Below, piece by piece: positions 23,580 through 36,976 of a DNA stretch of 52,558 nt. The DNA lies in NCBI GenBank assembly GCA_030611105.1, contig JAUWQL010000006.1:1-52558 (forward strand), written 5' to 3'. A program made the position numbers and the translations under genes. Below the pieces are notes generated by a model that worked only from the letters and a program-made list of their open reading frames with translations, had not been told where the DNA came from and ran no database searches. This stretch comes from Bacteroidales bacterium (lineage in GTDB: Bacteria > Bacteroidota > Bacteroidia > Bacteroidales > UBA12077). Every line of letters begins with the position of its first letter. Positions within the stretch are counted from its first letter, which is position 1.

Positions 23580-24962
23580 CTATTTTAAAGGATTTTTTTG
23601 AATCCACCGGTTGTATAACCACATGAAAAAAGCAGAGGCGATACCGATTCCCATAAGAATTATCCACCCTAAAGAATTCCAAAAAGGATCAAGTTGCAAA
23701 AGCCCGTTTTCGAGCATAATTGAATTCTTGCACATTATTTCATTTAGAATAGCAGCACCTGCAGGTCCTCCAATTAATGCGCCTATTGCCATGGGAAGAT
23801 TTGCATAACCCAGGAAAAGACCTTCCTTGCCTTTAGGAGCAAGAGCTCCTATAAATTCAAATTGTCGGGCAGCTGCAAAAAGTTCACCAAAAGCAATTAA
23901 AGCCACAGTAAGAACAATGAATAGTGAACCTATTGGAATTGTTACCCAAAAAAGGTTTACACCCTCTCTGATATTGCCATATAAAAGTATTGGCACCAGG
24001 TTTATTAACATTGAAAGTCCGATAATAATCCCACCTATAATAATTGATTTAATTGGTTTAAGCTTACCGAATAGTCTTATAACTAATAATTGGAAAAAAA
24101 CAATAACAAATGGATTGGCCATAGTGTAAATATCCACAGCAGGATCAATTTCTACTACCATTTCCAGATATTTAGGGAGAACATTGTACACTTGTGCATA
24201 AACGAACCAAAAACCACTAATCACCAGTAAAAATACAGCAAATCTAAGATTACGCAACACAAGAATCATGTCTAACAGAATTTTTGCAACTGTTTTTTTA
24301 GGTTCATCTTTTATTTCTTGTTCAGGCTCTTTATAAAAAAACAGAACTACAAAAAATGCAAAAATGGAGGCAGCTACCGATACTGCAAATATATAGCTGA
24401 GATCGAATTCTTTCCTGGCAATATAACTTATGCCTCTTCCTAATAATGATCCAACATTGATTATCATGTAGAATATGCCAAAACCCAGTGTTGCTCTTGT
24501 TCCGGAAGTTTTTTGAATTGTTCCTGAGATGCATGGTTTGATAACTGATCCACCCAGACCAATCAGTATAATGGCAGCAATTACAGGAATGATAATGTCA
24601 TATCCACTCGTTATTTCACTTGAACTTTTAGCAAGTAAGGTTGCGCCTCCAAACCATACGGGATATCCCATGATAAAATATCCTATGGACAGAAGAACAA
24701 AGGCTCCAAGTAGTGATTTCTTAAAACCAATTTCATCGGCAATGGTTCCGGATAAAATGGGTAAGAAGAACACGAGAAACCATAAGATTCCGTTTAAGGT
24801 ACTGGGCCAATAATCGCCGAGTCCCAGACGTCCGAGATAAAGCACAACGAAACTCGCCATTGCATAATAAGCACCCCTTTCAATTAGTTCAGTTACATTT
24901 GCTGTCCAGAATGTTTTTGGAAAGGCTTCAGGTTTTTTTATTTGTGTGTTATTATTTTCCAT
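23580..24962 (-). CDS. POT/PTR-type MFS transporter
   Basis: 460 aa, ~12 TM; FPKTFWTANVTELIERGAYYAMASFVVLYL, GGSVIKPCISGTIQ. Confidence 0.88.
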   Translation of the reverse strand: MENNNTQIKKPEAFPKTFWTANVTELIERGAYYAMASFVVLYLGRLGLGDYWPSTLNGILWFLVFFLPILSGTIADEIGFKKSLLGAFVLLSIGYFIMGYPVWFGGATLLAKSSSEITSGYDIIIPVIAAIILIGLGGSVIKPCISGTIQKTSGTRATLGFGIFYMIINVGSLLGRGISYIARKEFDLSYIFAVSVAASIFAFFVVLFFYKEPEQEIKDEPKKTVAKILLDMILVLRNLRFAVFLLVISGFWFVYAQVYNVLPKYLEMVVEIDPAVDIYTMANPFVIVFFQLLVIRLFGKLKPIKSIIIGGIIIGLSMLINLVPILLYGNIREGVNLFWVTIPIGSLFIVLTVALIAFGELFAAARQFEFIGALAPKGKEGLFLGYANLPMAIGALIGGPAGAAILNEIMCKNSIMLENGLLQLDPFWNSLGWIILMGIGIASAFFMWLYNRWIQKNPLK

Positions 24963-25294: not shown

Positions 25295-25312
25295 AATATT
25301 TTTTTAATACGA

Positions 25313-25336
25313 CGTAGCGAGGACGCTACGCCGAAC
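25313..25336 (+). repeat. REP-like hairpin copy A
   Basis: CGTAGCG-AGGA-CGCTACG-CCGAAC: 7-bp stem, 4-nt loop, CCGAAC tail. Confidence 0.75.
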
Positions 25337-25341
25337 AAGAC

Positions 25342-25986
25342 TTACTTTTTGTTTGATTTCCGAAGATGCTTTGTTTTTCTACTAGTTATATAAATACTCC
25401 GTATAAGATGATTTACAGCTTCTAGTGCTGATCCAATTACTGTAATTGAATGACTTTTAATTTGATGTGCACTTATGTTGCCAATTTCTCTTAGTTTATC
25501 TATAATTTCTAAATCATTTTTTGAGATATATCCATCTTCAAACAGGTTAGAAATTTTCTCCTTTAAATTTTTTCCAATGATCTTTTTATTTAGACAAACA
25601 GCCTCTACGATCATTCTAAGACCAATTCCACTTAAGATCATTGAATCAGATATATATGCTTCAATAACTTCAAAATATATTTGTGATACAAAATTTGGGA
25701 CATATGAAAAATCATCTTCACTTAAAAATTCGTCTTCATATAAGTAAAATCTATCTTCAGGGTAGTTATAATGAAGAATGTCATCATCATTTTGGATATC
25801 ACTATCCCATGCTAATTTTAAAAATGAAATTTCATCACATCCAAGGCATCTTATAATATTAAAACATTCATACTCGGTTGTATCATTTGATGATTCCATT
25901 TCAATTTCATTAGTTTTTTCCAGAATTTTATGATTAGTATAAGTTTCACATCTTTTGCATCTTGTATTAATTATTTCTTTATTCAT
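25342..25986 (-). CDS. DUF4145 domain-containing protein
   Basis: Zn-binding CKRCETYT...CFNIIRCLGCDEISF and MILSGIGLRMIVEAVCLNKKI...LREIGNISAHQ. Confidence 0.8.
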   Translation of the reverse strand: MNKEIINTRCKRCETYTNHKILEKTNEIEMESSNDTTEYECFNIIRCLGCDEISFLKLAWDSDIQNDDDILHYNYPEDRFYLYEDEFLSEDDFSYVPNFVSQIYFEVIEAYISDSMILSGIGLRMIVEAVCLNKKIIGKNLKEKISNLFEDGYISKNDLEIIDKLREIGNISAHQIKSHSITVIGSALEAVNHLIRSIYITSRKTKHLRKSNKK

Positions 25987-26079
25987 TAGAAGTATTTTTT
26001 AATTTTGATTGACAGAATTATTTAAAAAAAATCGAAAATTTATCATCTTGTATAAGAAGCCCAGGTTTATTATTTCCCC

Positions 26080-26103
26080 GTTCGGCTTAGGCTATTGCCT
26101 AAG
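26080..26103 (-). repeat. REP-like hairpin copy B
   Basis: On minus strand CTTAGGC-AATA-GCCTAAG-CCGAAC: same architecture as copy A with a different, compensated stem. Confidence 0.75.
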
Positions 26104-26141
26104 TCGTAATATCAATTAATATCACTTAATATCAATTGATT

Positions 26142-26702
26142 TTATACTGTTTTCCATCTAAAATCTGCTTTTATTACTTCAATTAAACTTTCAAGATCAG
26201 CATAATTTCTTGCGCTGCTATATAAGTAATCTTCTGGTTTTTCAACTATGCCTGCTGCAACAGGATTGTTATGTATGTATTCTATCTTCTGTTCTATAAA
26301 CTTTTGACTATAAATTAGTTCTGCATGATTTTCATGAGTCCATATTTGGAAAGATTGATTTTTCTTGAATTTCCCATGATATTCGAAAACAACCCTCATC
26401 CAGTCTCGCCGGCTTTCTTGTTTGTCTTCTAGTATCTTTAAAAACTTTTTACTTGTAAAGTTTTTAAAATCACGTATTGTTCCACTTAAATCTCCACACT
26501 GGCTTCGTGCTAAAAGATGAATATGATTTGACATGATCACATAAGCTATTACCTCTAATCCTTTATGTCTTTGACAATACTGAAGACTGTCAATAACAAT
26601 ATCCCGATAAACTTTACGCGTAAAAATATCAATCCAACCTACAATTTGAAATGTTAAATAGTACAAACCATCTTTTTCTGTTATTTTATAACCTGTTGAC
26701 AT
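26142..26702 (-). mobile_element. REP-associated tyrosine transposase (RAYT; Y1_Tnp/IS200-like)
   Basis: 186 aa; AYVIMSNHIHLLARS (HxH) and YIHNNPVAAGIVEKPEDYLYSSARNY. Confidence 0.93.
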
Positions 26703-26781
26703 ATAACAAATATAAATATTTTTACAAGTAATAATTGAATAGAATATTTTTTACAAATGTATTTAGTTAAAAATAGAACGA

Positions 26782-26805
26782 TGCAGGCAAAAGCCTACGC
26801 CGAAC
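26782..26805 (+). repeat. REP-like hairpin copy C
   Basis: TGCAGGC-AAAA-GCCTACG-CCGAAC; same architecture, stem with mismatch. Confidence 0.7.
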
Positions 26806-26816
26806 AGTGGGCACAA

Positions 26817-27920
26817 TTAGTTAATAGAATAATCAATAGATGTTTTCGCTCTGTAAAAACCTAATGTATAACAGATTCGGCCTCTTACAATGCATGGATG
26901 AATTCTATTTTCTTTTGCAAATTCTTCAATATGCAAATCGTCAAATTGTCTTTTAAAAAAGAAAGATTTCCATTCTTTGGGCACAATCAAATTATTTTGA
27001 GCAAATAAATCTGCTTCTTTCTCATCCTTTGAATTCTTGTAATCTTTTTGCTCTTTCGATGATATTAGATCAACGAACTCAGCTTTATTGTTATTTAGTA
27101 GATGTTCAAACACATGCCCTAACTCATGAAAAAGGGTAAAGGCAAAATTATCCAACCTGCTATGTCTTAGAGACATTCCAATTGCAGGGCTTCCATTACT
27201 CCAAAACGAAACACCATCTACCGGAGTTTTTTCTCCTTTTCTTTGATAAATTAATTTAATTCCAAAATCTGACAATGCCTGCTTTACTGTAATAAGAGTG
27301 TTGTTATTGATTCGTATTATTTGTCTAAGTTTCTGCATTAAATCATCCTTTTGATCATAATCAAACTTGTCAACAAAAACCTGATTTGCATTAAATTGAA
27401 GTAATTTTACCCATCCAATAATATTTATTGGATCAACTTTTAATTTTGTTGACTTCCTAAACCTAGCAAAAGTTGGTTCAGCATTGATCTTAGCTAGCTC
27501 CTCAAAATTTTGAACGTTGTACACTTTTTTAACTGCAATTATATCCTCAATAGGATCTCCACTTAATATCTTTTCTTTTTTTAAAAAAGAAGTAGCGATT
27601 TGGCTCTCAATAAACTTCCACTGCTCAATAGCATCTAATCTTTGCTGATTTTTCATGCTTATTCGAGCCTTGTCAAGATCATAATTCTTTTGAATTTCCA
27701 ACCAATATTCTGCATCAATTTCCAATGACTTTTCTAATAAAATAGCCAATTCAGCATTAATATTTCTTTTACCTTTTATTATTTCATTCAGTTGACTTTT
27801 CTTTAAACCGATTGTTTTTGCGAAATCACTTTGAGAAAAATCATTGGCTTCTATTTCATCTAATAAGATCTCACCAGGATGCGTGGCTACAAATGGAATG
27901 GTGTTTTCTGTGGTTTTCAT
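26817..27920 (-). CDS. HigA-family antitoxin (XRE HTH) fused to ImmA/IrrE-type metallopeptidase domain
   Basis: HPGEILLDEIEANDFSQSDFAKTIGLKKSQLNEIIKGKRNI; HELGH zinc motif in FTLFHELGHVFEHLLN. Confidence 0.9.
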   Translation of the reverse strand: MKTTENTIPFVATHPGEILLDEIEANDFSQSDFAKTIGLKKSQLNEIIKGKRNINAELAILLEKSLEIDAEYWLEIQKNYDLDKARISMKNQQRLDAIEQWKFIESQIATSFLKKEKILSGDPIEDIIAVKKVYNVQNFEELAKINAEPTFARFRKSTKLKVDPINIIGWVKLLQFNANQVFVDKFDYDQKDDLMQKLRQIIRINNNTLITVKQALSDFGIKLIYQRKGEKTPVDGVSFWSNGSPAIGMSLRHSRLDNFAFTLFHELGHVFEHLLNNNKAEFVDLISSKEQKDYKNSKDEKEADLFAQNNLIVPKEWKSFFFKRQFDDLHIEEFAKENRIHPCIVRGRICYTLGFYRAKTSIDYSIN

Positions 27921-27926
27921 TTTTCT

Positions 27927-28262
27927 CTATTTTTCGTAATGTTTACTAAGATCCTCAATTTCTAATAAGTCAATAATAAGATTGTCAGGATTAGTAGCTA
28001 TTTCTCTAAAAAGAATTCGATATTGCTTATTTATCCATACAACACTTATTCCTTCTAGGTTCCCCACCTTCTTTTCATAGTTGAGGCTCTTAATTTGATA
28101 TAACTGTTCAATTTTTGTTATACCTTTTAATTTGTTTATAGTCTTAACGTATTGCTTAACAAGCTGAGGGTTGGACTTATACTTTTTGTATTTTTTAACC
28201 TCACCCTCAAATAAATCAGACAAGTATGTTTTTATAAAAACTATTCTCATAATAATTAACAC
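27927..28262 (-). CDS. HigB/RelE-family toxin
   Basis: 111 aa; NKLKGITKIEQLYQIKSLNYEKKVGNLEGISVVWINKQYRILFRE...LLEIEDLSKHYE; immediately upstream of HigA-like gene. Confidence 0.88.
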   Translation of the reverse strand: MLIIMRIVFIKTYLSDLFEGEVKKYKKYKSNPQLVKQYVKTINKLKGITKIEQLYQIKSLNYEKKVGNLEGISVVWINKQYRILFREIATNPDNLIIDLLEIEDLSKHYEK

Positions 28263-28433
28263 AAATATATACTATTTGTTCACATATTTGTGAACTTTAA
28301 AGCAAATTTATATTTATTCTAAATAAGCTTGCAGGATCATTTTCGACGTGTGATGTTATTTTATCTTTTCTTTCCAGTTTGCTTGTTACACGGACAACTT
28401 ACCTTCGCTTTCAGCTACGGTCTACAAAGCATG

Positions 28434-28452
28434 CCTGCCTGTCGGCAGACAG
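28434..28452. repeat. GGCAG-family palindromic repeat
   Basis: CTGCC-TGTC-GGCAG hairpin; similar to elements at 9965 and 35910. Confidence 0.6.
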
Positions 28453-28469
28453 TTCCACGCGAGCTGGTA

Positions 28470-28482
28470 CGCTACGCCGAAC
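28470..28482 (+). repeat. degenerate REP-like element copy D
   Basis: CGCTACGCCGAAC shares right arm and tail of copy A, left arm not conserved. Confidence 0.45.
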
Positions 28483-28493
28483 TGAGATAAATA

Positions 28494-29063
28494 TTAAATT
28501 ATTTTCATTTCTTTTAGTTTCCAAAAACATCTTGCTGTAGCTTCAATATCTACTGACGCATTATGAGCTTCCTTAAAATCTTTCCCAAATAGTTTCACAT
28601 GTAATTCTGAGAGTTTTGGCCATTTATATCCATAATTTCCAGGTATTCTACAGAAGTTTGTCGATTCTTTCATTGTACAGATAGATTGCTTATTGTTAAA
28701 ATTTGTATTAATTTTTTTTCGAAACATTTCTGCTCCAATTATTTTTGAATCGAAGCTTATATTATGAGCTACCAAAGTATTTGCCCTATCTATTTCTTGG
28801 TTAAATGCATTTAAAACATTTATTAATTCTACACCCTTATCCAGTGCAATAGAAGTTGTAATACCATGAACTCGGGATGCATCTGCTGGTATAGTAAAGC
28901 CTTCTGGCTTTATTATGAATTCTTGAGTATCAATCCTATTCCCTTCTATATCAAAAACTAACCATGCAATCTGGACCAATCTTGGCCAATTATCTGAATC
29001 TGTAATTGGAGCTTTCCAATTTCTTGGCAATCCTGTCGTCTCTGTGTCAAAAAATAAATACAT
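28494..29063 (-). CDS. DnaQ-like 3'-5' exonuclease (DEDDh)
   Basis: FFDTETTGLPR, LVAHNISFDSKI, AHNASVDIEATARCF. Confidence 0.93.
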   Translation of the reverse strand: MYLFFDTETTGLPRNWKAPITDSDNWPRLVQIAWLVFDIEGNRIDTQEFIIKPEGFTIPADASRVHGITTSIALDKGVELINVLNAFNQEIDRANTLVAHNISFDSKIIGAEMFRKKINTNFNNKQSICTMKESTNFCRIPGNYGYKWPKLSELHVKLFGKDFKEAHNASVDIEATARCFWKLKEMKII

Positions 29064-29065
29064 AA

Positions 29066-32000
29066 TTATTTCCCTTTAAGTTTATTGATGAAATTCGGAA
29101 TTCTCTTTGACCAATATGAAATATCTATTGATAAGATTTTTCCTATGAAAAATGCTACGATTGGCCAACAAAAAGCACGCAAAACCCATAGATAAGAACT
29201 TGTAGACCCTGAAGCATCATCAGAATTAATAGCAAAATTTATTTGTACAACAAAGAACATAAAAAGTGCAAATAATAATACATCAATAATAAGCTGCCAT
29301 TTGCCAGAATAAATGAATGTTATTTTATTTCTAAATAATTTTCCCCTCTTTAATTTATTGTAAAGAATATCAAATCTTTTATCTGGAATGATAATATTAT
29401 AAATGATTCCTTTCTTTTTTTCATATTGTAAATTTCCTTTCTTTTCAAAATTGTTAAAAGCATCTGTAAAAGGATTATTATTAATCAAAGAAATAGGAAT
29501 CTCATTTTTTTTGCCAAACAGATTTTTAAGTTCAAATTTTTTATAAATCTTATAGTATTTATTTTGTCTTCGTTTTATTCCATGTTTCTTTTGAATCTTT
29601 CTCAAAAGAAACAGGAGAGACAATATTTTTGTCTTATCATTTTGTAATTCATTATTTAAATTGGCAGGACATCTATAATGATTTAATAAGGAATCATTAA
29701 TAAGTGAAATATAGTTGTATATAGCCTCTTCAACAGGGGGATTTTGATTCATAAATAAATCAATTAACATTTCATCTTTTCTTGACCTAGTTCTTTGAAT
29801 AACTATTTGATTATCTTCTCTTGAAAAATCAAAATAAACCAATAAGCATAGAATGCTAATTTCTTTTAAGGAATAATTAATGGAATTATTAAAAATACTA
29901 TTTCCCGGAACGTTATAAACTTTGATTAAATGATTGATATTTCTTATTTCAGATTTGGAAATATTCGTAGTTACGCCTTCACAAGCAATGTTATCAATAT
30001 TTTCCGTTAAGGGAGCTATTTCCTTATTAGAAATTAAAATAGACTTAAATAAACAATGAATTTCCAAACAATATACTGTAAACGTATTTAGCAAGAGAAA
30101 GTAATTTAAATAAAATCTCTCGCTATAATTTTCAAGTAATTTATTAATATTTGAATTAAAGTTCAGAATATTTTCTGATAATTTACACAAACCATAAGGG
30201 TATGCTTTATTGAGAAAAATTTCATTCTTAAAATTAATGTTTGAAAAATCTATTTTGCCATATGTTAAAGCAAAATCACTATACAATTCAATAAGACCAC
30301 TAGTAATTCCCTTCCAATTAATAAACTGTTCACAATTTTTAAAAATATCTATTTTTAATTTTTCACTGAAAAACAAATAAGAAATAGAAACTTCATCATC
30401 AACATTTTCTATTCGTATTAAATCTATTAGATAACTAACTTTTTCAATTCTAATATTCCTATTCTGTATTCTTTTAATTAGATAATAAACAAATAATTGA
30501 ATACCTGTTTTGGGATTTTTATTAGAATCAATATACTTATCAAATTCCGTTTTCGTCTTGAATAATATATTAAATATCAAAGAATATATAAGCTTTAATA
30601 TATTTTCAGAATTATTACTATCAATTATTTCATTATCACAATTATATTGATTTAGAACATCTTTTCCTTTTTTAGTAAAAAGCACATCAAATGTTTCTTT
30701 ATTTATTATTGCATTACCAATAATGATAGGAATTCTACCTGTAATCCTATGATAAATTAAAGATTTCTGATATAAAACATTAATCAGTTTTAAGAAATTA
30801 AAACAATCATGATTATTTTCTAAGGAAAATAAAATTTCAGATATGTTAATGTAAGATTCAGGAATGCTAGAATTTAGTCTTACTTCCTTAAGAGTACTAT
30901 TATATTCAACGCTTGTGTCAGGTATAATTAACTTTTCATTAAGTTTACTAATATTCCTAATAATTTCTTGATGGTTTGTTGAATCTGTAAAAGGTAAGAC
31001 TTCTCTATAGTTATTATTATTTTCAACTGAACAATAGTAGGAACATTCGTTATATTGCTCAATTCGATTATAGCCATCATCTTCAATAGAAACTAAACTT
31101 CCAAAAGAGTCCTCTATTCTGCTAACAACCATTTTTATTGCATCCTTAATTTCAGTTTGCTGATCTTCATAGAGAATTATCAAATTTTCTAATTCCCTTA
31201 TATTTGAGTTTTTATATTTTTCAAAGATCTTTCTGCCAAATAAATTAACAATGAAATCATCATATTTTGGTTTCTCATCTTCAATAAATCTTATTAATGT
31301 ACTTAATAGTTGTTTCTGTCCAACTATAAGAGACAAAATCTTACAGCATTCACTGTGAATTAGACAAACATTATTACTTAATATTCTTTTGAAAAGATTA
31401 TTATCAATCTCTCTAAAAGTACTAACATGCTCAATTCCTGAAAGAAATGCCTTTTTAATTAAGTAATTTGTATTTAGCTTAAACCCTTTATCAATTTCAT
31501 TTTGAATCTGAGTTTCTAACTTGAAATAATCAACAGACAATAATAATTTGCATGAAAGAAATGTAGATTCAATATTATTTACTTTTTCAACTACATTTTT
31601 CTCTATGTCAAATATTTTAACTTCTGGAATTGTAAAGTTTATTCTCAATAAAACACCATAAAGAAAGGGATCTTCTGTAGAAATCGATTCTGCTAATATT
31701 TTCTTTAGAGATTCGAGATGTGCCTTCTTTTCATTTATATATTTTTCATATACTGCAATCAGAAAATATGTTTTATTTACAGAATCATCAAGTAATTGAA
31801 AGAAAGAATAATAGTCTTTATTCAGATCGGTATATATTTGAATAAGCCTTGGGAAAATATTTTTAATTTTTTTGGGGAAAAATTCACCTTTCCTTGCAAG
31901 TTCTTCTACAATATCAATAATTATCTCCTTTTGTCGAGGCTCGATATGAGGTGTTGTACCAAAGTAAATTAATGTAGGGATTTCTTTATTCTTATCATTT

Positions 32001-34129
32001 GCATCATAAGCTCTTTCAATTATAGTTTCATAAAATTCGCTAATAATTTGTTCATTCAGGTTTGGAAGAAATTTATGATCTTCAAATATTCCGTATCTAA
32101 CGGCGTTAATTTTATCTTGAAGTATGGATTCATCAACTGATTCTGTGATTACAGCTTTCTTACTTTCATCATCAGACAATTTAAGTCCTATATTATTAAG
32201 ACGATTTACAATCCATTCTTTTACTTTTGTTGCTTTCTCGAAACTATCAAATAAAACAAAAAAATCATCAACATATCTGAAATAGCCATCAGATAGTTCT
32301 TTTAATTCTTTATCAAATTCATTTAAATATACATTTGCTAAAGGTCGAGCGTATGCAGGACCCTGCGGTAGACCTAATTCATTACTTTCATCAAAAGAAT
32401 AAGAGTTTATTATTTTTTCCAGTAATTCTAAAACATATTGATTTCCAATTATTGACCTTAACTGGCTAACCAGAATATCCTTTCTAATATTATCGTAATA
32501 TCCCTTAATGTCACAACATATGTAGTATTTTATATCAGGATCTCGAAGTTTACTTAGGACTGTATTTCTAAATGAAGGGTATTTTTCTCGCCAATCCTCA
32601 AAGATATTATATGATTTCCTGTTGGTGTAGTTTTGTCTATACCCATATGAGTTTTCTTGAAAATTACTTTCTAGAATTTCTCCAATTATATTGAAAATAG
32701 ATTGTGCTATAATTTGATCAAATACTGAAGAATAAGCCATTGTCCGTTTGACCATTTTGCCATCACTTTCAATTTTTTTTGGAATACCAACTTTCTCATA
32801 ATGAATAATAGGAATATCAACCTTGTTTTTTATCATTAATGAAGTTAGCTGTATATTAATATCAAAATCTTTTTCAAAGAAATTGAAGTCAAATTCATCA
32901 TAGAAAAGAGCATCTTCATTTTTATGATATTCCTTGAGTCTGTAATAGGCAAGTCGAATATTTTCAAATGAGCATATTTTCTCTAAAAGATTTTCTGATA
33001 AAGACTCATTAATATTTAAGCTAATTGCAACTTGAGAATGTAATGGTGTTGTATTGCGCAAAGATTCATCTTCGCATCTTTTTTTAAACTCAGGTTTGCA
33101 ATATTCTTTACAAATACCACTATTAATTAAAGTTCTGCAATTAGCAGGTTGAAGTTTCCCAATTAATTTTAATTCTTTTTCAGCTACCTGGTAGGAATAT
33201 TTGTTCCCTAAAGAAGTCTTAATAAGAAAATGAATATAATCTCTTGAGTCTTTTAGAGATAACAATGTATTTGACAAATTAGTTAATTCAATATGCGTTA
33301 ATGCATTTTTTTTAATTGCTTTATCTTTAAGAGCGTTTATAGCACTACAGTTATTGAATAGTTTATCAATGTCATTTTTGTAAATCTTTCTTCTTCTAGG
33401 TTCGTATTCTTCTTTTATAAAAATATTTGTTTCGTATTTTAGAATTTTTTTGTACTGATTTACAATTTCAAAAACTTTTTCTGATTTAATCTTGACTACA
33501 GAATCGAGATGCTTTAAATTATCATTTAGATCATTTATTATCTCTATCTCTCCTTCAATCAAAGTGAAGAATTTGCTTCTATTATTATATTTTTTATGTT
33601 CACCTAATGGTAGCTTAATTAGGTTTCCGTATTTTCTTTTTTCATTTAATGTAGGCTGTTTTGGAAAGAATTCAAATGAAAAGTCTTTCAATTTATTTTT
33701 TAAGATTTCATTTATGAATAAAGCATCATGACCTTCAATTGGTTTTTCAAAAAATACCCAAATATGATAACCTCTACCTCCACTGTCTTCATAAAGTATA
33801 TTTTCTGGTTTGAAAAATTCTTTTTCAAGAATATTTTGAAACTTCAATAACTGATCTTTAAGGTATTCAAATTTTATGCTAGAATCAGCGAAATTAACCT
33901 GAGACAATTCAATTTTTTCAATGTCTATGTCAATGCAAATGAAATTACACTTGCTTAATTTTGTTAAAACATATACACCAAAAGTCTTTATCCCTTCGAT
34001 ATGTTTGGTTAGGACGTTTTCGTTTAGTTTCTGTTTTATTGGATAATAGTAATTTGTGCCTTGAACAGCAATAAATTCTTCTCTACCCTTAAAATAATCA
34101 AGGTATGTGTTTAATTCATTTTCAATCAT
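29066..34129 (-). CDS. TOTE-type archaeo-eukaryotic primase / reverse transcriptase fusion with long helical C-terminal region and two terminal TM helices
   Basis: 1687 aa; primase region KTFGVYVLTKLSKCNFICIDIDIE and YEDSGGRGYHIWVFFEKP; Cys cluster CRTLINSGICKEYCKPEFKKRC; RT motifs YICCDIKGYYDNI, GLPQGPAYARPLANVYL, FRYVDDFFVLF; C-terminal WQLIIDVLLFALFMFFVVQI and WVLRAFCWPIVAFFIGKIL. Confidence 0.93.
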   Translation of the reverse strand: MIENELNTYLDYFKGREEFIAVQGTNYYYPIKQKLNENVLTKHIEGIKTFGVYVLTKLSKCNFICIDIDIEKIELSQVNFADSSIKFEYLKDQLLKFQNILEKEFFKPENILYEDSGGRGYHIWVFFEKPIEGHDALFINEILKNKLKDFSFEFFPKQPTLNEKRKYGNLIKLPLGEHKKYNNRSKFFTLIEGEIEIINDLNDNLKHLDSVVKIKSEKVFEIVNQYKKILKYETNIFIKEEYEPRRRKIYKNDIDKLFNNCSAINALKDKAIKKNALTHIELTNLSNTLLSLKDSRDYIHFLIKTSLGNKYSYQVAEKELKLIGKLQPANCRTLINSGICKEYCKPEFKKRCEDESLRNTTPLHSQVAISLNINESLSENLLEKICSFENIRLAYYRLKEYHKNEDALFYDEFDFNFFEKDFDINIQLTSLMIKNKVDIPIIHYEKVGIPKKIESDGKMVKRTMAYSSVFDQIIAQSIFNIIGEILESNFQENSYGYRQNYTNRKSYNIFEDWREKYPSFRNTVLSKLRDPDIKYYICCDIKGYYDNIRKDILVSQLRSIIGNQYVLELLEKIINSYSFDESNELGLPQGPAYARPLANVYLNEFDKELKELSDGYFRYVDDFFVLFDSFEKATKVKEWIVNRLNNIGLKLSDDESKKAVITESVDESILQDKINAVRYGIFEDHKFLPNLNEQIISEFYETIIERAYDANDKNKEIPTLIYFGTTPHIEPRQKEIIIDIVEELARKGEFFPKKIKNIFPRLIQIYTDLNKDYYSFFQLLDDSVNKTYFLIAVYEKYINEKKAHLESLKKILAESISTEDPFLYGVLLRINFTIPEVKIFDIEKNVVEKVNNIESTFLSCKLLLSVDYFKLETQIQNEIDKGFKLNTNYLIKKAFLSGIEHVSTFREIDNNLFKRILSNNVCLIHSECCKILSLIVGQKQLLSTLIRFIEDEKPKYDDFIVNLFGRKIFEKYKNSNIRELENLIILYEDQQTEIKDAIKMVVSRIEDSFGSLVSIEDDGYNRIEQYNECSYYCSVENNNNYREVLPFTDSTNHQEIIRNISKLNEKLIIPDTSVEYNSTLKEVRLNSSIPESYINISEILFSLENNHDCFNFLKLINVLYQKSLIYHRITGRIPIIIGNAIINKETFDVLFTKKGKDVLNQYNCDNEIIDSNNSENILKLIYSLIFNILFKTKTEFDKYIDSNKNPKTGIQLFVYYLIKRIQNRNIRIEKVSYLIDLIRIENVDDEVSISYLFFSEKLKIDIFKNCEQFINWKGITSGLIELYSDFALTYGKIDFSNINFKNEIFLNKAYPYGLCKLSENILNFNSNINKLLENYSERFYLNYFLLLNTFTVYCLEIHCLFKSILISNKEIAPLTENIDNIACEGVTTNISKSEIRNINHLIKVYNVPGNSIFNNSINYSLKEISILCLLVYFDFSREDNQIVIQRTRSRKDEMLIDLFMNQNPPVEEAIYNYISLINDSLLNHYRCPANLNNELQNDKTKILSLLFLLRKIQKKHGIKRRQNKYYKIYKKFELKNLFGKKNEIPISLINNNPFTDAFNNFEKKGNLQYEKKKGIIYNIIIPDKRFDILYNKLKRGKLFRNKITFIYSGKWQLIIDVLLFALFMFFVVQINFAINSDDASGSTSSYLWVLRAFCWPIVAFFIGKILSIDISYWSKRIPNFINKLKGK

Positions 34130-34331
34130 TATCTCATAATATATTTATCTATAATTATTATCTTACTATTTTGTAAGCTCTCTTATAATTTAACAGTGAA
34201 ATTAATTCCTTTAGTAATCAAGTCTGGCAATATTTTTTTTACTAAACCTTAAAGGACATTTATTTTTTCACCAATTTATCTTCCAGCGAATCAATAATTT
34301 TCGGTCCGTTATCGATAAACCCCTGCTGGCT

Positions 34332-34346
34332 CGGACATCTTGTCCG
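34332..34346. repeat. short perfect hairpin upstream of the primase-RT gene
   Basis: CGGACA-TCT-TGTCCG. Confidence 0.55.
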
Positions 34347-34395
34347 TCCATTTATTATTGTTACTAAACACGGATAATATATTCGCCAGAGCTCT

Positions 34396-34599
34396 CTACT
34401 GATTAGAACCAAATCCATTTTCACTTTCCCATTGCAAAGCCGCTTCTCTTGTAGTTCTAATTCCTACCTGATAAATATGTCCGCGTGGCCACTTTAGTTT
34501 ATGCTCAGCTTCTCTTCGGTTGAGATCATTTGTAATACCTGCATGTACAATTTTATTTCCAACTTTAAAATAATACTTATAAGTGTCTCTAATTGCCAT
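34396..34599 (-). CDS. small GIY-YIG-like protein
   Basis: 67 aa; KYYFKVGNKIVHAGITNDLNRREAEHKLKWPRGHIYQVG resembles a minimal GIY-YIG domain. Confidence 0.65.
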   Translation of the reverse strand: MAIRDTYKYYFKVGNKIVHAGITNDLNRREAEHKLKWPRGHIYQVGIRTTREAALQWESENGFGSNQ

Positions 34600-34713: not shown

Positions 34714-35427
34714 CTAAGCCTTTTTTAATCTTAAAAACTTTAATGAACTATTTTTAAATTCAATGACATATTCTATTGTTCTACCTTTAAGCAACCACGA
34801 TATTGCAAAAGCCACAACCATTACCGTTTCGAGAATAAATACATCGTAAACGGTAATATAGCCCTTTCCACCAGATAACCTAATACCAAATTCAATCACT
34901 AATAGTAACATTGAAAACCAAATAGTATATCCACAGAACTTATACATAAAGTGGTACTTTTTATCTGTCCCTCTTGTAAAATTAAATATCGACATATATC
35001 CCATAGCAATAAAAAATATTGCTGCACTAATAAGATGCAAAATATTAATATTTTCAATGTCATGACCGAATAAACAATATTTTCCTGAGATACATACATT
35101 ACAAATCTTAAGAGCCGTATCTGCGCAGGCAGTTGGGACAAGCACAACAATTAATATCGCAAAACCACCCACATGAGTTATAAAGTTGTCGCTAAATCCT
35201 TTTTCTTTTTCTTTTGGTTTATAGCCTTCATACGATATAAGAAATAAACCAAATGCAGCAAGAATAGCAATAAAAAATACTGCTGATCTGGTATAATAAT
35301 AAAGACTAATAGATGGCAAAAAACCGCAATAAAAAATTACTATTAGAAAAGGGAGCAACAAACCAAGAATTCCAATTAATTTTCTAATCCTGCTATAGGA
35401 GTTAAAAATATCTGTATTGTCTTTCAT
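34714..35427 (-). CDS. hypothetical multi-pass membrane protein
   Basis: 237 aa, about six hydrophobic segments; no confident family. Confidence 0.7.
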   Translation of the reverse strand: MKDNTDIFNSYSRIRKLIGILGLLLPFLIVIFYCGFLPSISLYYYTRSAVFFIAILAAFGLFLISYEGYKPKEKEKGFSDNFITHVGGFAILIVVLVPTACADTALKICNVCISGKYCLFGHDIENINILHLISAAIFFIAMGYMSIFNFTRGTDKKYHFMYKFCGYTIWFSMLLLVIEFGIRLSGGKGYITVYDVFILETVMVVAFAISWLLKGRTIEYVIEFKNSSLKFLRLKKA

Positions 35428-35438
35428 AATAAATAATT

Positions 35439-35855
35439 TTAGGTTATTGTTATTTTAAAACTATATTTCCATTTTGCTTTATTGCCTTTGTAGCGTCCTC
35501 CATTTTCTGTAACAGTTACTTCAATAGTAAAAGAATATTCACTACTTAAATCAATTTTATTCAGGTCAATTAATCGGGAGTTTTTGCCGAAATCAGGGTA
35601 TTTCTCGTCGTATTCGCAACAAATTACTTTAATAAATAATGTGTCGGTTTCAGTACGCTTCAGGTTTAAGTTCTTATATTCTGAAAGTGGTATATTATTT
35701 ACTGTAACGTCATGCGACCATTCATTACCAACATGATTATTATAAACATTTGAGATAGAATCAAGCTGTACTTCCAGTGTTTCCTGTGAATAGGAGATTA
35801 GTGAAGTACTAATCAAAACAAAAATTAAAGGTATTTTTTTTAAAAACTCATACAT
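35439..35855 (-). CDS. hypothetical secreted protein
   Basis: 138 aa with signal peptide; no recognised family. Confidence 0.6.
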   Translation of the reverse strand: MYEFLKKIPLIFVLISTSLISYSQETLEVQLDSISNVYNNHVGNEWSHDVTVNNIPLSEYKNLNLKRTETDTLFIKVICCEYDEKYPDFGKNSRLIDLNKIDLSSEYSFTIEVTVTENGGRYKGNKAKWKYSFKITIT

Positions 35856-36106: not shown

Positions 36107-36976
36107 ATGGATAAGGTTTCAACAATCATTTTGGCTGCTTCTCTTATAATCATTATGTTGGGAATGGGATTATCGTTAGTTATTGACGATTTTAAAAGGA
36201 TATTAGTATACCCAAAAGCAATATTGGTTGGTTTAACTAATCAGTTAATAATTTTACCGTTAATAGGATTTTCTATTGCATTAATATTTCCGTTAAAGCC
36301 TGAAATTGCAATAGGAATTATGATTTTAGCTGCTTGTCCGGGCGGACCAACATCAAATTTAATAACACATTTGGCAAAGGGAGATTTGGCCTTGTCTGTT
36401 TCTCTAACGGCATTAAGTAGTTTTATTACCATATTAACTATTCCATTTATTGTAAATTTTGCCTTGATCCAATTTTTAGATGAAGAACAAATGGTAAGGT
36501 TGGATATAGTTGAAACTATTATCCAGATTTTTATAATCATAGTTATTCCGGTAAGTATTGGTATGCTTATAAGAAAATATAAAGAAGGGTTCGCTTTAAA
36601 GATGGCTAAGCCTGTGCGCAAAGCATCCGGAATTATTATAGCTTTAATTATAATAGGTATAGTTATTAAAGAAAAAGAAAACCTTATTCCTTATTTTCGA
36701 CAAGCAGGATTGGTGGCATTGATATTAAATGTTGCTACTATGCTGGTTGGCTATTTTTCTGCGAGATTATTTAAAATTATAGATAAAAGAGCTGTATCTA
36801 TTTCTATTGAATCGGGAATTCAAAATGGAACTTTAGCTATAACTATTGCGGTGGTTTTACTTGGGAATAGTGAATTTGCAATTACCCCTGCTATATATAG
36901 TTTATTAATGTTTTTTACCGGTGGTATTGCTATTTATTTTGGGATTAAAAGAAGTAAAGCAAAAAGTGGTACTTAA
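36107..36976 (+). CDS. bile acid:sodium symporter (BASS) family protein
   Basis: 289 aa multi-TM; ILAACPGGPTSNLITHLAKGDLALSVSLTALSS. Confidence 0.92.
   Translation: MDKVSTIILAASLIIIMLGMGLSLVIDDFKRILVYPKAILVGLTNQLIILPLIGFSIALIFPLKPEIAIGIMILAACPGGPTSNLITHLAKGDLALSVSLTALSSFITILTIPFIVNFALIQFLDEEQMVRLDIVETIIQIFIIIVIPVSIGMLIRKYKEGFALKMAKPVRKASGIIIALIIIGIVIKEKENLIPYFRQAGLVALILNVATMLVGYFSARLFKIIDKRAVSISIESGIQNGTLAITIAVVLLGNSEFAITPAIYSLLMFFTGGIAIYFGIKRSKAKSGT

What the first reader, a model, noticed from the sequence alone, without database searches (positions are those of the whole stretch)
28494..34129. Two-gene operon: TOTE-type primase-RT giant fusion plus DEDDh exonuclease, a candidate antiviral or nucleic-acid-synthesis system
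The 1687-aa protein combines an archaeo-eukaryotic primase-like N-terminus (CIDIDIE; SGGRGYHIWVFF), a Cys cluster (CX9CX3CX7C), an RT core with intact catalytic Asp motifs (CDIKGYYDNI, YVDD), a ~900-aa mostly helical region and two TM helices. The exonuclease starts 2 bp after the RT stop codon with all DEDDh residues present, so co-translation is likely. Established knowledge: UG/Abi and DRT reverse transcriptases are defence-associated, use helical-repeat C-termini, and (from memory) one class, UG10/DRT7, carries a primase domain. An exonuclease partner plus a membrane anchor is unusual to my knowledge. Inference: primase-primed cDNA synthesis with exonucleolytic control, membrane-localised, possibly abortive.
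Basis: partly seen in the sequence, partly recalled or inferred. Interest (0 to 1): 0.92.

Follow-up and report, generated by a model that had tools for sequence, protein, structure and literature searches.

The report
Giant primase–reverse transcriptase fusion, orphan
A Bacteroidota-type genome carries, in a spot where its relatives keep other genes or a known anti-phage system, a very large protein that joins a primase-polymerase to a reverse transcriptase; it looks like a distant cousin of the DRT7 anti-phage enzymes, while the exonuclease gene beside it is a roaming gene that elsewhere lives without it.

Summary
In detail: 29066-34129(-) encodes 1687 aa with an AEP primase-polymerase domain (Pfam AEP-TOTE; closest solved structure a CRISPR-associated Prim-Pol), a Cys4 cluster, an intact RT, a helical domain and two C-terminal hydrophobic helices. 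A DEDDh exonuclease (28494-29063) starts 2 bp later. About 190-aa exonucleases of this family occur at about 40 other loci, none near an AEP and none beside a fused RT; they resemble the proofreading domain of Bacteroidota DNA polymerase III. In sister genome G311 the same chromosomal site holds an exonuclease next to Gabija instead. The window's exonuclease is foreign to its own family, so it may have arrived with the fusion gene. The only named family matched collinearly across AEP and RT is RT_UG10_large (DRT7), at 147 bits; labelled members of other DRT families score 370-680 bits on their own models, and the C-terminal 990 aa match nothing. Best reading: a divergent, DRT7-like antiviral primase-RT in a variable locus, with a probably co-transcribed but not obligatory exonuclease. 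No orthologue was found, so the antiviral function is inferred. New variant of a known kind.

The parts
29066..34129 (-). AEP primase-polymerase / RT fusion gene, 1687 aa
   Evidence: GC 0.258 against 0.33-0.35 in the flanks
33440..34129 (-). AEP (CAPP/TOTE-type primase-polymerase) domain, residues 1-230, with DxD (65-71) and SxxxGxH (116-122) motifs
   Evidence: Pfam AEP-TOTE 92 bits; PDB 7nqd 94 bits; NCBIfam PrimPol_Msp 160 bits, cut-off 200
33074..33139 (-). Cys cluster C331-X8-C340-X3-C344-X7-C352, possible metal or Fe-S site
32150..32995 (-). reverse transcriptase domain, residues 379-660, catalytic D540 and YVDD 619-622, motif GLPQGPAYARPLAN 586-599
   Evidence: AF2 model pLDDT mostly 80-95 in the core; RT folds in PDB
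31532..32062 (-). helical domain directly after the RT, residues about 690-866, alpha-repeat-like
   Evidence: AF2 with a 28-row alignment, pLDDT about 65-88 for most of it
29330..31531 (-). about 730-aa C-terminal region without any detectable relative; predicted helical at low confidence
29222..29305 (-). hydrophobic helix 1, residues 1609-1636
   Evidence: Kyte-Doolittle up to 2.4
29117..29191 (-). hydrophobic helix 2, residues 1647-1671, borderline
   Evidence: Kyte-Doolittle up to 1.8
28494..29063 (-). stand-alone DEDDh 3'-5' exonuclease, 189 aa, DNA polymerase III epsilon/DnaQ type
   Evidence: PF00929 58.8 bits; PHROG 192 143 bits; related to the N-terminal exonuclease of 1430-1590-aa Bacteroidota ORFs
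34396..34599 (-). 67-aa ORF in the leader of the fusion gene, absent from G311 at this site; no family match
25307..34597 (.). variable segment: replaced in sister G311 by exonuclease + GajA + GajB, no recognised defence gene in G308; flanks syntenic
26817..28262 (-). HigB/HigA-like toxin-antitoxin pair; HigA carries an M78 peptidase and matches PD-Lambda-2_B (145 bits)

Best explanation
The 1687-aa protein is a divergent, DRT7(UG10)-like antiviral DNA-synthesis enzyme that sits in a variable, defence-bearing chromosomal site. Most likely mechanism: the AEP and RT active sites in one chain make DNA without an associated RNA gene, as reported for DRT7. Product builds up when phage infection releases a brake, and the accumulated DNA halts the cell or phage. 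The helical C-terminal half would oligomerise or hold the product, and the C-terminal hydrophobic hairpin may place it at the membrane. The downstream DEDDh 3'-5' exonuclease is probably co-transcribed and may degrade product and act as the brake. It is, however, a general mobile accessory gene, not a dedicated and conserved subunit. Shown: domains, intact catalytic residues, hotspot location, foreign origin of the exonuclease. Inferred: antiviral role, product, brake.
For: UG10_large is the only profile matching AEP and RT collinearly (147 bits). Scored alone, the RT gives UG10_large 102 bits; in the group II, CRISPR and UG19 control RTs UG10_large is not among the 25 listed families, whose last scores were about 50-101 bits. 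The RT motifs YYD, LPQGPxxARPLAN and YVDD differ from the FFD / SPLLAN / YADD pattern of group II and CRISPR RTs, and the tree puts it with UG9/UG19/UG34/DRT8/UG14 (83/90). A helical domain follows the RT, and Foldseek matches include DRT4, DRT6, DRT9, AbiK and Abi-P2 over about 440-510 columns. Sister G311 carries Gabija at this site (GajA 756 bits, GajB 531 bits). A HigA-like PD-Lambda-2_B homologue is adjacent. The RT gene is AT-rich. No Rfam RNA, Cas1 or CRISPR-like repeat array lies nearby. DRT7 as an RT-PrimPol fusion making protein-primed, protein-templated DNA is reported from a preprint (PMC13213688). Host exonucleases restrain DRT9 (ExoI) and DRT3 (RecBCD) (PMC13174585).
Against: The score is far below family level: DRT members labelled here score 374-678 bits on their own model, this one 147. 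The AEP part is not UG10-specific: it prefers PrimPol (115 against 86 bits), and a primase-helicase without RT scores 109 bits on UG10_large. The UG10_large C-terminal half is not matched. Grouping with group II or CRISPR RTs is not rejected (AU p 0.13-0.23). Best Foldseek E-values are group II-type RTs. No experiment and no orthologue support a defence function.
Confidence: 0.55

Rival explanations
1. A true two-component system: the exonuclease travels with the AEP-RT as one cassette and is required, as proofreader or as antitoxin-like brake.
For: 2-bp spacing and same strand. The window exonuclease is 58-63% identical to the family's other exonucleases, which are 71-91% identical to each other (clade 93/97); its nearest is from another family (68%), while the flanks match G311 at 88-95%. 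So it was imported, plausibly with the fusion. Host exonucleases restrain other DRTs (PMC13174585).
Against: No other locus of this exonuclease family (about 40 examined) carries an AEP or a fused RT. It is alone or beside Gabija elsewhere. The presence of an exonuclease at the same site in G311 and beside the same 136-138-aa gene in G318 suggests that the exonuclease, not the pair, is the recurrent element.
Confidence: 0.25
2. A close member of UG10/DRT7, simply under-scored.
For: Same domain order and nearly the same length as the UG10_large model (1687 against 1688).
Against: Only model positions 24-794 align; C-terminal half unmatched; score far below member level.
Confidence: 0.15
3. Not defence: a replication, repair or CRISPR-adaptation polymerase (CAPP-like) that acquired an RT.
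For: The AEP is closest to CRISPR-associated Prim-Pols; DnaQ-type exonucleases occur in CRISPR adaptation (PADLOC DEDDh 99 bits).
Against: No Cas1 and no CRISPR-like repeat array around it; the RT is not of the Cas1-linked kind by motif or score; rare, AT-rich, in a variable site.
Confidence: 0.12

Closest known systems
DRT7 / UG10 defence-associated RT (PADLOC RT_UG10_large, RT_UG10_small)
   Same: N-terminal AEP/PrimPol fused to an RT in one long protein; collinear profile match to residues 23-822
   Different: Low score (147 bits); C-terminal about 900 aa unrelated to the model; hydrophobic C-terminal hairpin and downstream exonuclease are not part of any UG10 description I could reach
CRISPR-associated primase-polymerases (CAPP; NCBIfam PrimPol_Msp, PDB 7nqd)
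   Same: Closest AEP by sequence (160 bits over residues 3-334)
   Different: Below the family cut-off of 200; no Cas genes; fused to a UG-like RT
TOTE conflict systems
   Same: AEP-TOTE Pfam domain above cut-off
   Different: No helicase or endonuclease partner; RT instead
UG19 / UG21 and other UG/Abi RTs
   Same: RT core best scores (124 and 109 bits), UG-like motifs, helical domain after the RT
   Different: A real UG19 scores 386 bits on its model; the UG19 member seen here has no AEP
Stand-alone DnaQ/epsilon-type exonucleases of Bacteroidota and their phages
   Same: The 189-aa neighbour belongs here, mostly 48-68% identical
   Different: Elsewhere in unrelated gene neighbourhoods, in phage operons, or beside Gabija

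Membership tests
DRT7 / UG10 | AEP domain fused N-terminal to an RT in one chain | tested here: met
DRT7 / UG10 | Score on the UG10 profile comparable with that of members of a DRT family on their own profile | tested here: not met
   147 bits against 374-678 for labelled members of other families
DRT7 / UG10 | C-terminal half as in the UG10_large model (positions about 800-1688) | tested here: not met
   no match of residues 700-1687 to any PADLOC model
DRT7 / UG10 | RT inside the UG10 clade | not testable with these tools
   no UG10 sequence could be fetched; 396 genomes of the phylum gave none
DRT7 / UG10 | Protein-primed, RNA-independent DNA synthesis and phage defence | not testable with these tools
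   needs biochemistry; reported for DRT7 in preprints cited by PMC13213688
UG/Abi-type RT | RT motifs and placement apart from group II and CRISPR RTs | tested here: inconclusive
   motifs UG-like, tree 83/90 with UG9/UG19/UG34/DRT8/UG14, alternative not rejected
UG/Abi-type RT | Helical repeat domain after the RT | tested here: met
   AF2 model
TOTE conflict system | AEP-TOTE domain | tested here: met
   92 bits, cut-off 27
TOTE conflict system | Associated helicase and endonuclease | tested here: not met
   none in the gene or among the neighbouring genes scanned
CRISPR-associated Prim-Pol | NCBIfam PrimPol_Msp cut-off and Cas neighbours | tested here: not met
   160 against 200 bits; no Cas1 in the window
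Dedicated RT + exonuclease operon | Exonuclease neighbour conserved across homologues | tested here: not met
   about 40 loci of the exonuclease family without an AEP-RT; RT-side test impossible because no orthologue was found

The most novel reading that the evidence does not exclude
A new DRT type outside UG10: a membrane-anchored AEP-RT with its own unrelated C-terminal half, co-mobilised and co-translated with a polymerase-III-type proofreading exonuclease that degrades its DNA product until a phage disables it.
Probability: 0.2. Interest if true: 0.78.

Novelty: new variant of a known kind. Interest (0 to 1): 0.5.

Why it matters
AEP-RT fusions are rare and only recently linked to unusual protein-templated DNA synthesis. 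A divergent one with a different C-terminal half and hydrophobic hairpin would show how far the architecture has spread. An exonuclease encoded in the same transcript would make the idea that host nucleases hold such systems in check directly testable in one operon. The hotspot comparison also shows that a tight gene pair can mislead: an exonuclease of the same family recurs at the same site beside Gabija.

Tried and rejected
Orthologue hunts that gave no second AEP-RT fusion: one genome-contig scan (only a TOTE protein, L003), plasmids and phages by tblastn, the phylum (297 and 396 genomes), order (247), class (395), family (25), the family and order of the exonuclease's nearest relative, and viral contigs. 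Of 206 AEP-bearing ORFs collected, only the window's own has an RT. These searches had no positive control, and in the larger genome samples only two or three candidates per genome were scored. The G544 hit to the C-terminus was chance: it spans the end of RecN and the next gene. Group II intron or CRISPR origin of the RT was considered and is disfavoured by motifs and scores but not excluded. An RNA partner was looked for in Rfam only. The single-sequence model of the C-terminus (pLDDT 36) was too poor to search. Foldseek of the RT + helical model confirmed an RT but did not discriminate families. Lead preprints on DRT7 and the original UG/Abi survey are not held in the library.

Full report
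Observation. The two ORFs are exactly as described: 29066-34129(-), 1687 aa, and 28494-29063(-), 189 aa, 2 bp apart. The long frame is not a chance ORF. Domains: AEP-TOTE 92 bits over residues 33-219, RVT_1 50 bits over 462-657, RNase_T 59 bits for the exonuclease. The signature catalytic residues are present in all three enzymes. The Cys cluster spacing is CX8CX3CX7C. Two hydrophobic segments lie at 1609-1636 and 1647-1671, the second borderline.

AEP. By sequence the closest solved structure is 7nqd/7nqf (94 bits; I know it as the Marinitoga CRISPR-associated Prim-Pol), and the best NCBIfam model is the CRISPR-associated primase-polymerase A1, over residues 3-334 but below its cut-off (160 against 200). 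The AEP alone prefers PADLOC PrimPol (115 bits) over RT_UG10_large (86). An AEP-helicase protein of the same genus scores 109 bits on RT_UG10_large (L034), so the AEP portion does not discriminate.

RT. Alone it scores UG19 124, generic RT 122, UG21 109, UG10_large 102. Calibration with labelled RTs from the same phylum: members of UG9, UG14, UG17, UG19, UG34, DRT2, DRT3a and DRT8 score 374-678 bits on their own models. Group II and CRISPR RTs score 206-270 on generic RT. In the controls UG10_large is not among the 25 listed families; the 25th-ranked score was about 40 to 101 bits depending on the protein. The window RT therefore belongs to no family represented there at member level and leans to UG types. 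Its motifs (YYD, LPQGPAYARPLAN, YVDD) depart from the group II/CRISPR pattern. In a 37-row tree it groups with UG9/UG19/UG34/DRT8/UG14 at 83/90, but long branches are present and an alternative grouping with group II or CRISPR RTs is not rejected (AU p 0.13-0.23). No UG10 sequence could be obtained, so UG10 membership by tree is untested.

C-terminus. With a 28-row alignment AlphaFold2 gives a good RT and a helical domain after it (mean pLDDT 73), as expected for UG/Abi enzymes. Foldseek finds group II-type RTs first and DRT4, DRT6, DRT9, UG15, AbiK and Abi-P2 over longer alignments. The remaining about 730 residues have no relative in any library or genome sample searched and are helical only by a low-confidence single-sequence model.

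Locus. Flanking genes (a peptide-transporter-like gene at 23580-24962 and a bile-acid-type symporter at 36107-36973; names from sequence appearance) are syntenic in two genomes of the same genus. In G308 (L211) the interval holds no recognised defence gene. In G311 (L212) it holds the same 138- and 237-aa genes, then a DEDDh exonuclease, then GajA and GajB (756 and 531 bits). Homology between window and G311 stops at window 34597, the point where the G311 exonuclease starts, and resumes at 25306. So 25307-34597 is a swapped segment, and the site is a variable one used at least twice for defence-type cargo. The RT gene is AT-rich (0.258) against 0.33-0.35 in the flanks.

Exonuclease. It is related to the N-terminal exonuclease of about 1430-1590-aa ORFs, interpreted as Bacteroidota DNA polymerase III alpha, and occurs as a stand-alone gene in about 14 genome loci examined and 27 viral contigs. 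The window's own genome has a second copy on another contig beside a ParE-type toxin gene. No AEP lies near any of the 41 exonuclease loci, and only two phage-like loci have an RT of another clade 1-3 kb away. Exonucleases of the window's taxonomic family are 71-91% identical to each other and form a clade (93/97). The window's is 58-63% identical to them and nearest to one from another family (68%; weak support 83/51). It is therefore probably an import, possibly together with the fusion gene. That is the one observation in favour of a unit, and it stands against the general promiscuity of the gene.

Mechanism. What is known of DRT7 comes from overviews of preprints: an RT-PrimPol fusion making protein-primed, protein-templated A/T-rich DNA (PMC13213688). 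In DRT9 and DRT3 host exonucleases keep product low until infection (PMC13174585). A linked exonuclease could serve the same purpose here; a preprint title also reports proofreading exonuclease activity in a PrimPol-RT hybrid (cited in PMC13174585, not read). All of this is analogy. The defence role rests on architecture, RT type and location.

Verdict. A real, well-delimited and unusual gene, best described as a divergent DRT7-like primase-RT. The 'two-gene operon' is a fact of this one genome, not a demonstrated conserved system.

Noticed in passing
L212:6768-11315 (G311): Gabija (GajA + GajB) preceded by the DEDDh exonuclease 30 bp upstream, at the same chromosomal site as the window's fusion gene; whether the exonuclease serves Gabija is unknown.
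   Followed up: partly
window 25316-25336, 26785-26805, 28462-28482; 26142-26702: REP-like 21-nt repeats (GTTCGGCGTAGCGT...) frame the HigBA / DUF4145 segment beside a REP-associated tyrosine transposase; one lies at the island's edge (25316) and one just after the exonuclease.
   Followed up: partly
window 26817-28262: HigB/HigA-like pair whose antitoxin carries an M78 peptidase and matches PD-Lambda-2_B (145 bits).
   Followed up: no
L272:5923-7291 (G000:C176): Second copy of the exonuclease in the same genome, 63% identical, followed by a ParE-type toxin gene.
   Followed up: partly
L277:6510-11114 and L250:7001-10063: Phage-like loci with the same exonuclease family and an RT of another clade 1-3 kb downstream.
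   Followed up: no
window 34714-35855; L212:5500-6635; L294:700-1110: A 136-138-aa gene of unknown function (with a 237-aa membrane gene in two of three) sits upstream of the exonuclease in three genomes, possibly part of a mobile module.
   Followed up: no
window 34396-34599: 67-aa ORF in the leader of the fusion gene, absent from G311; no family match.
   Followed up: partly
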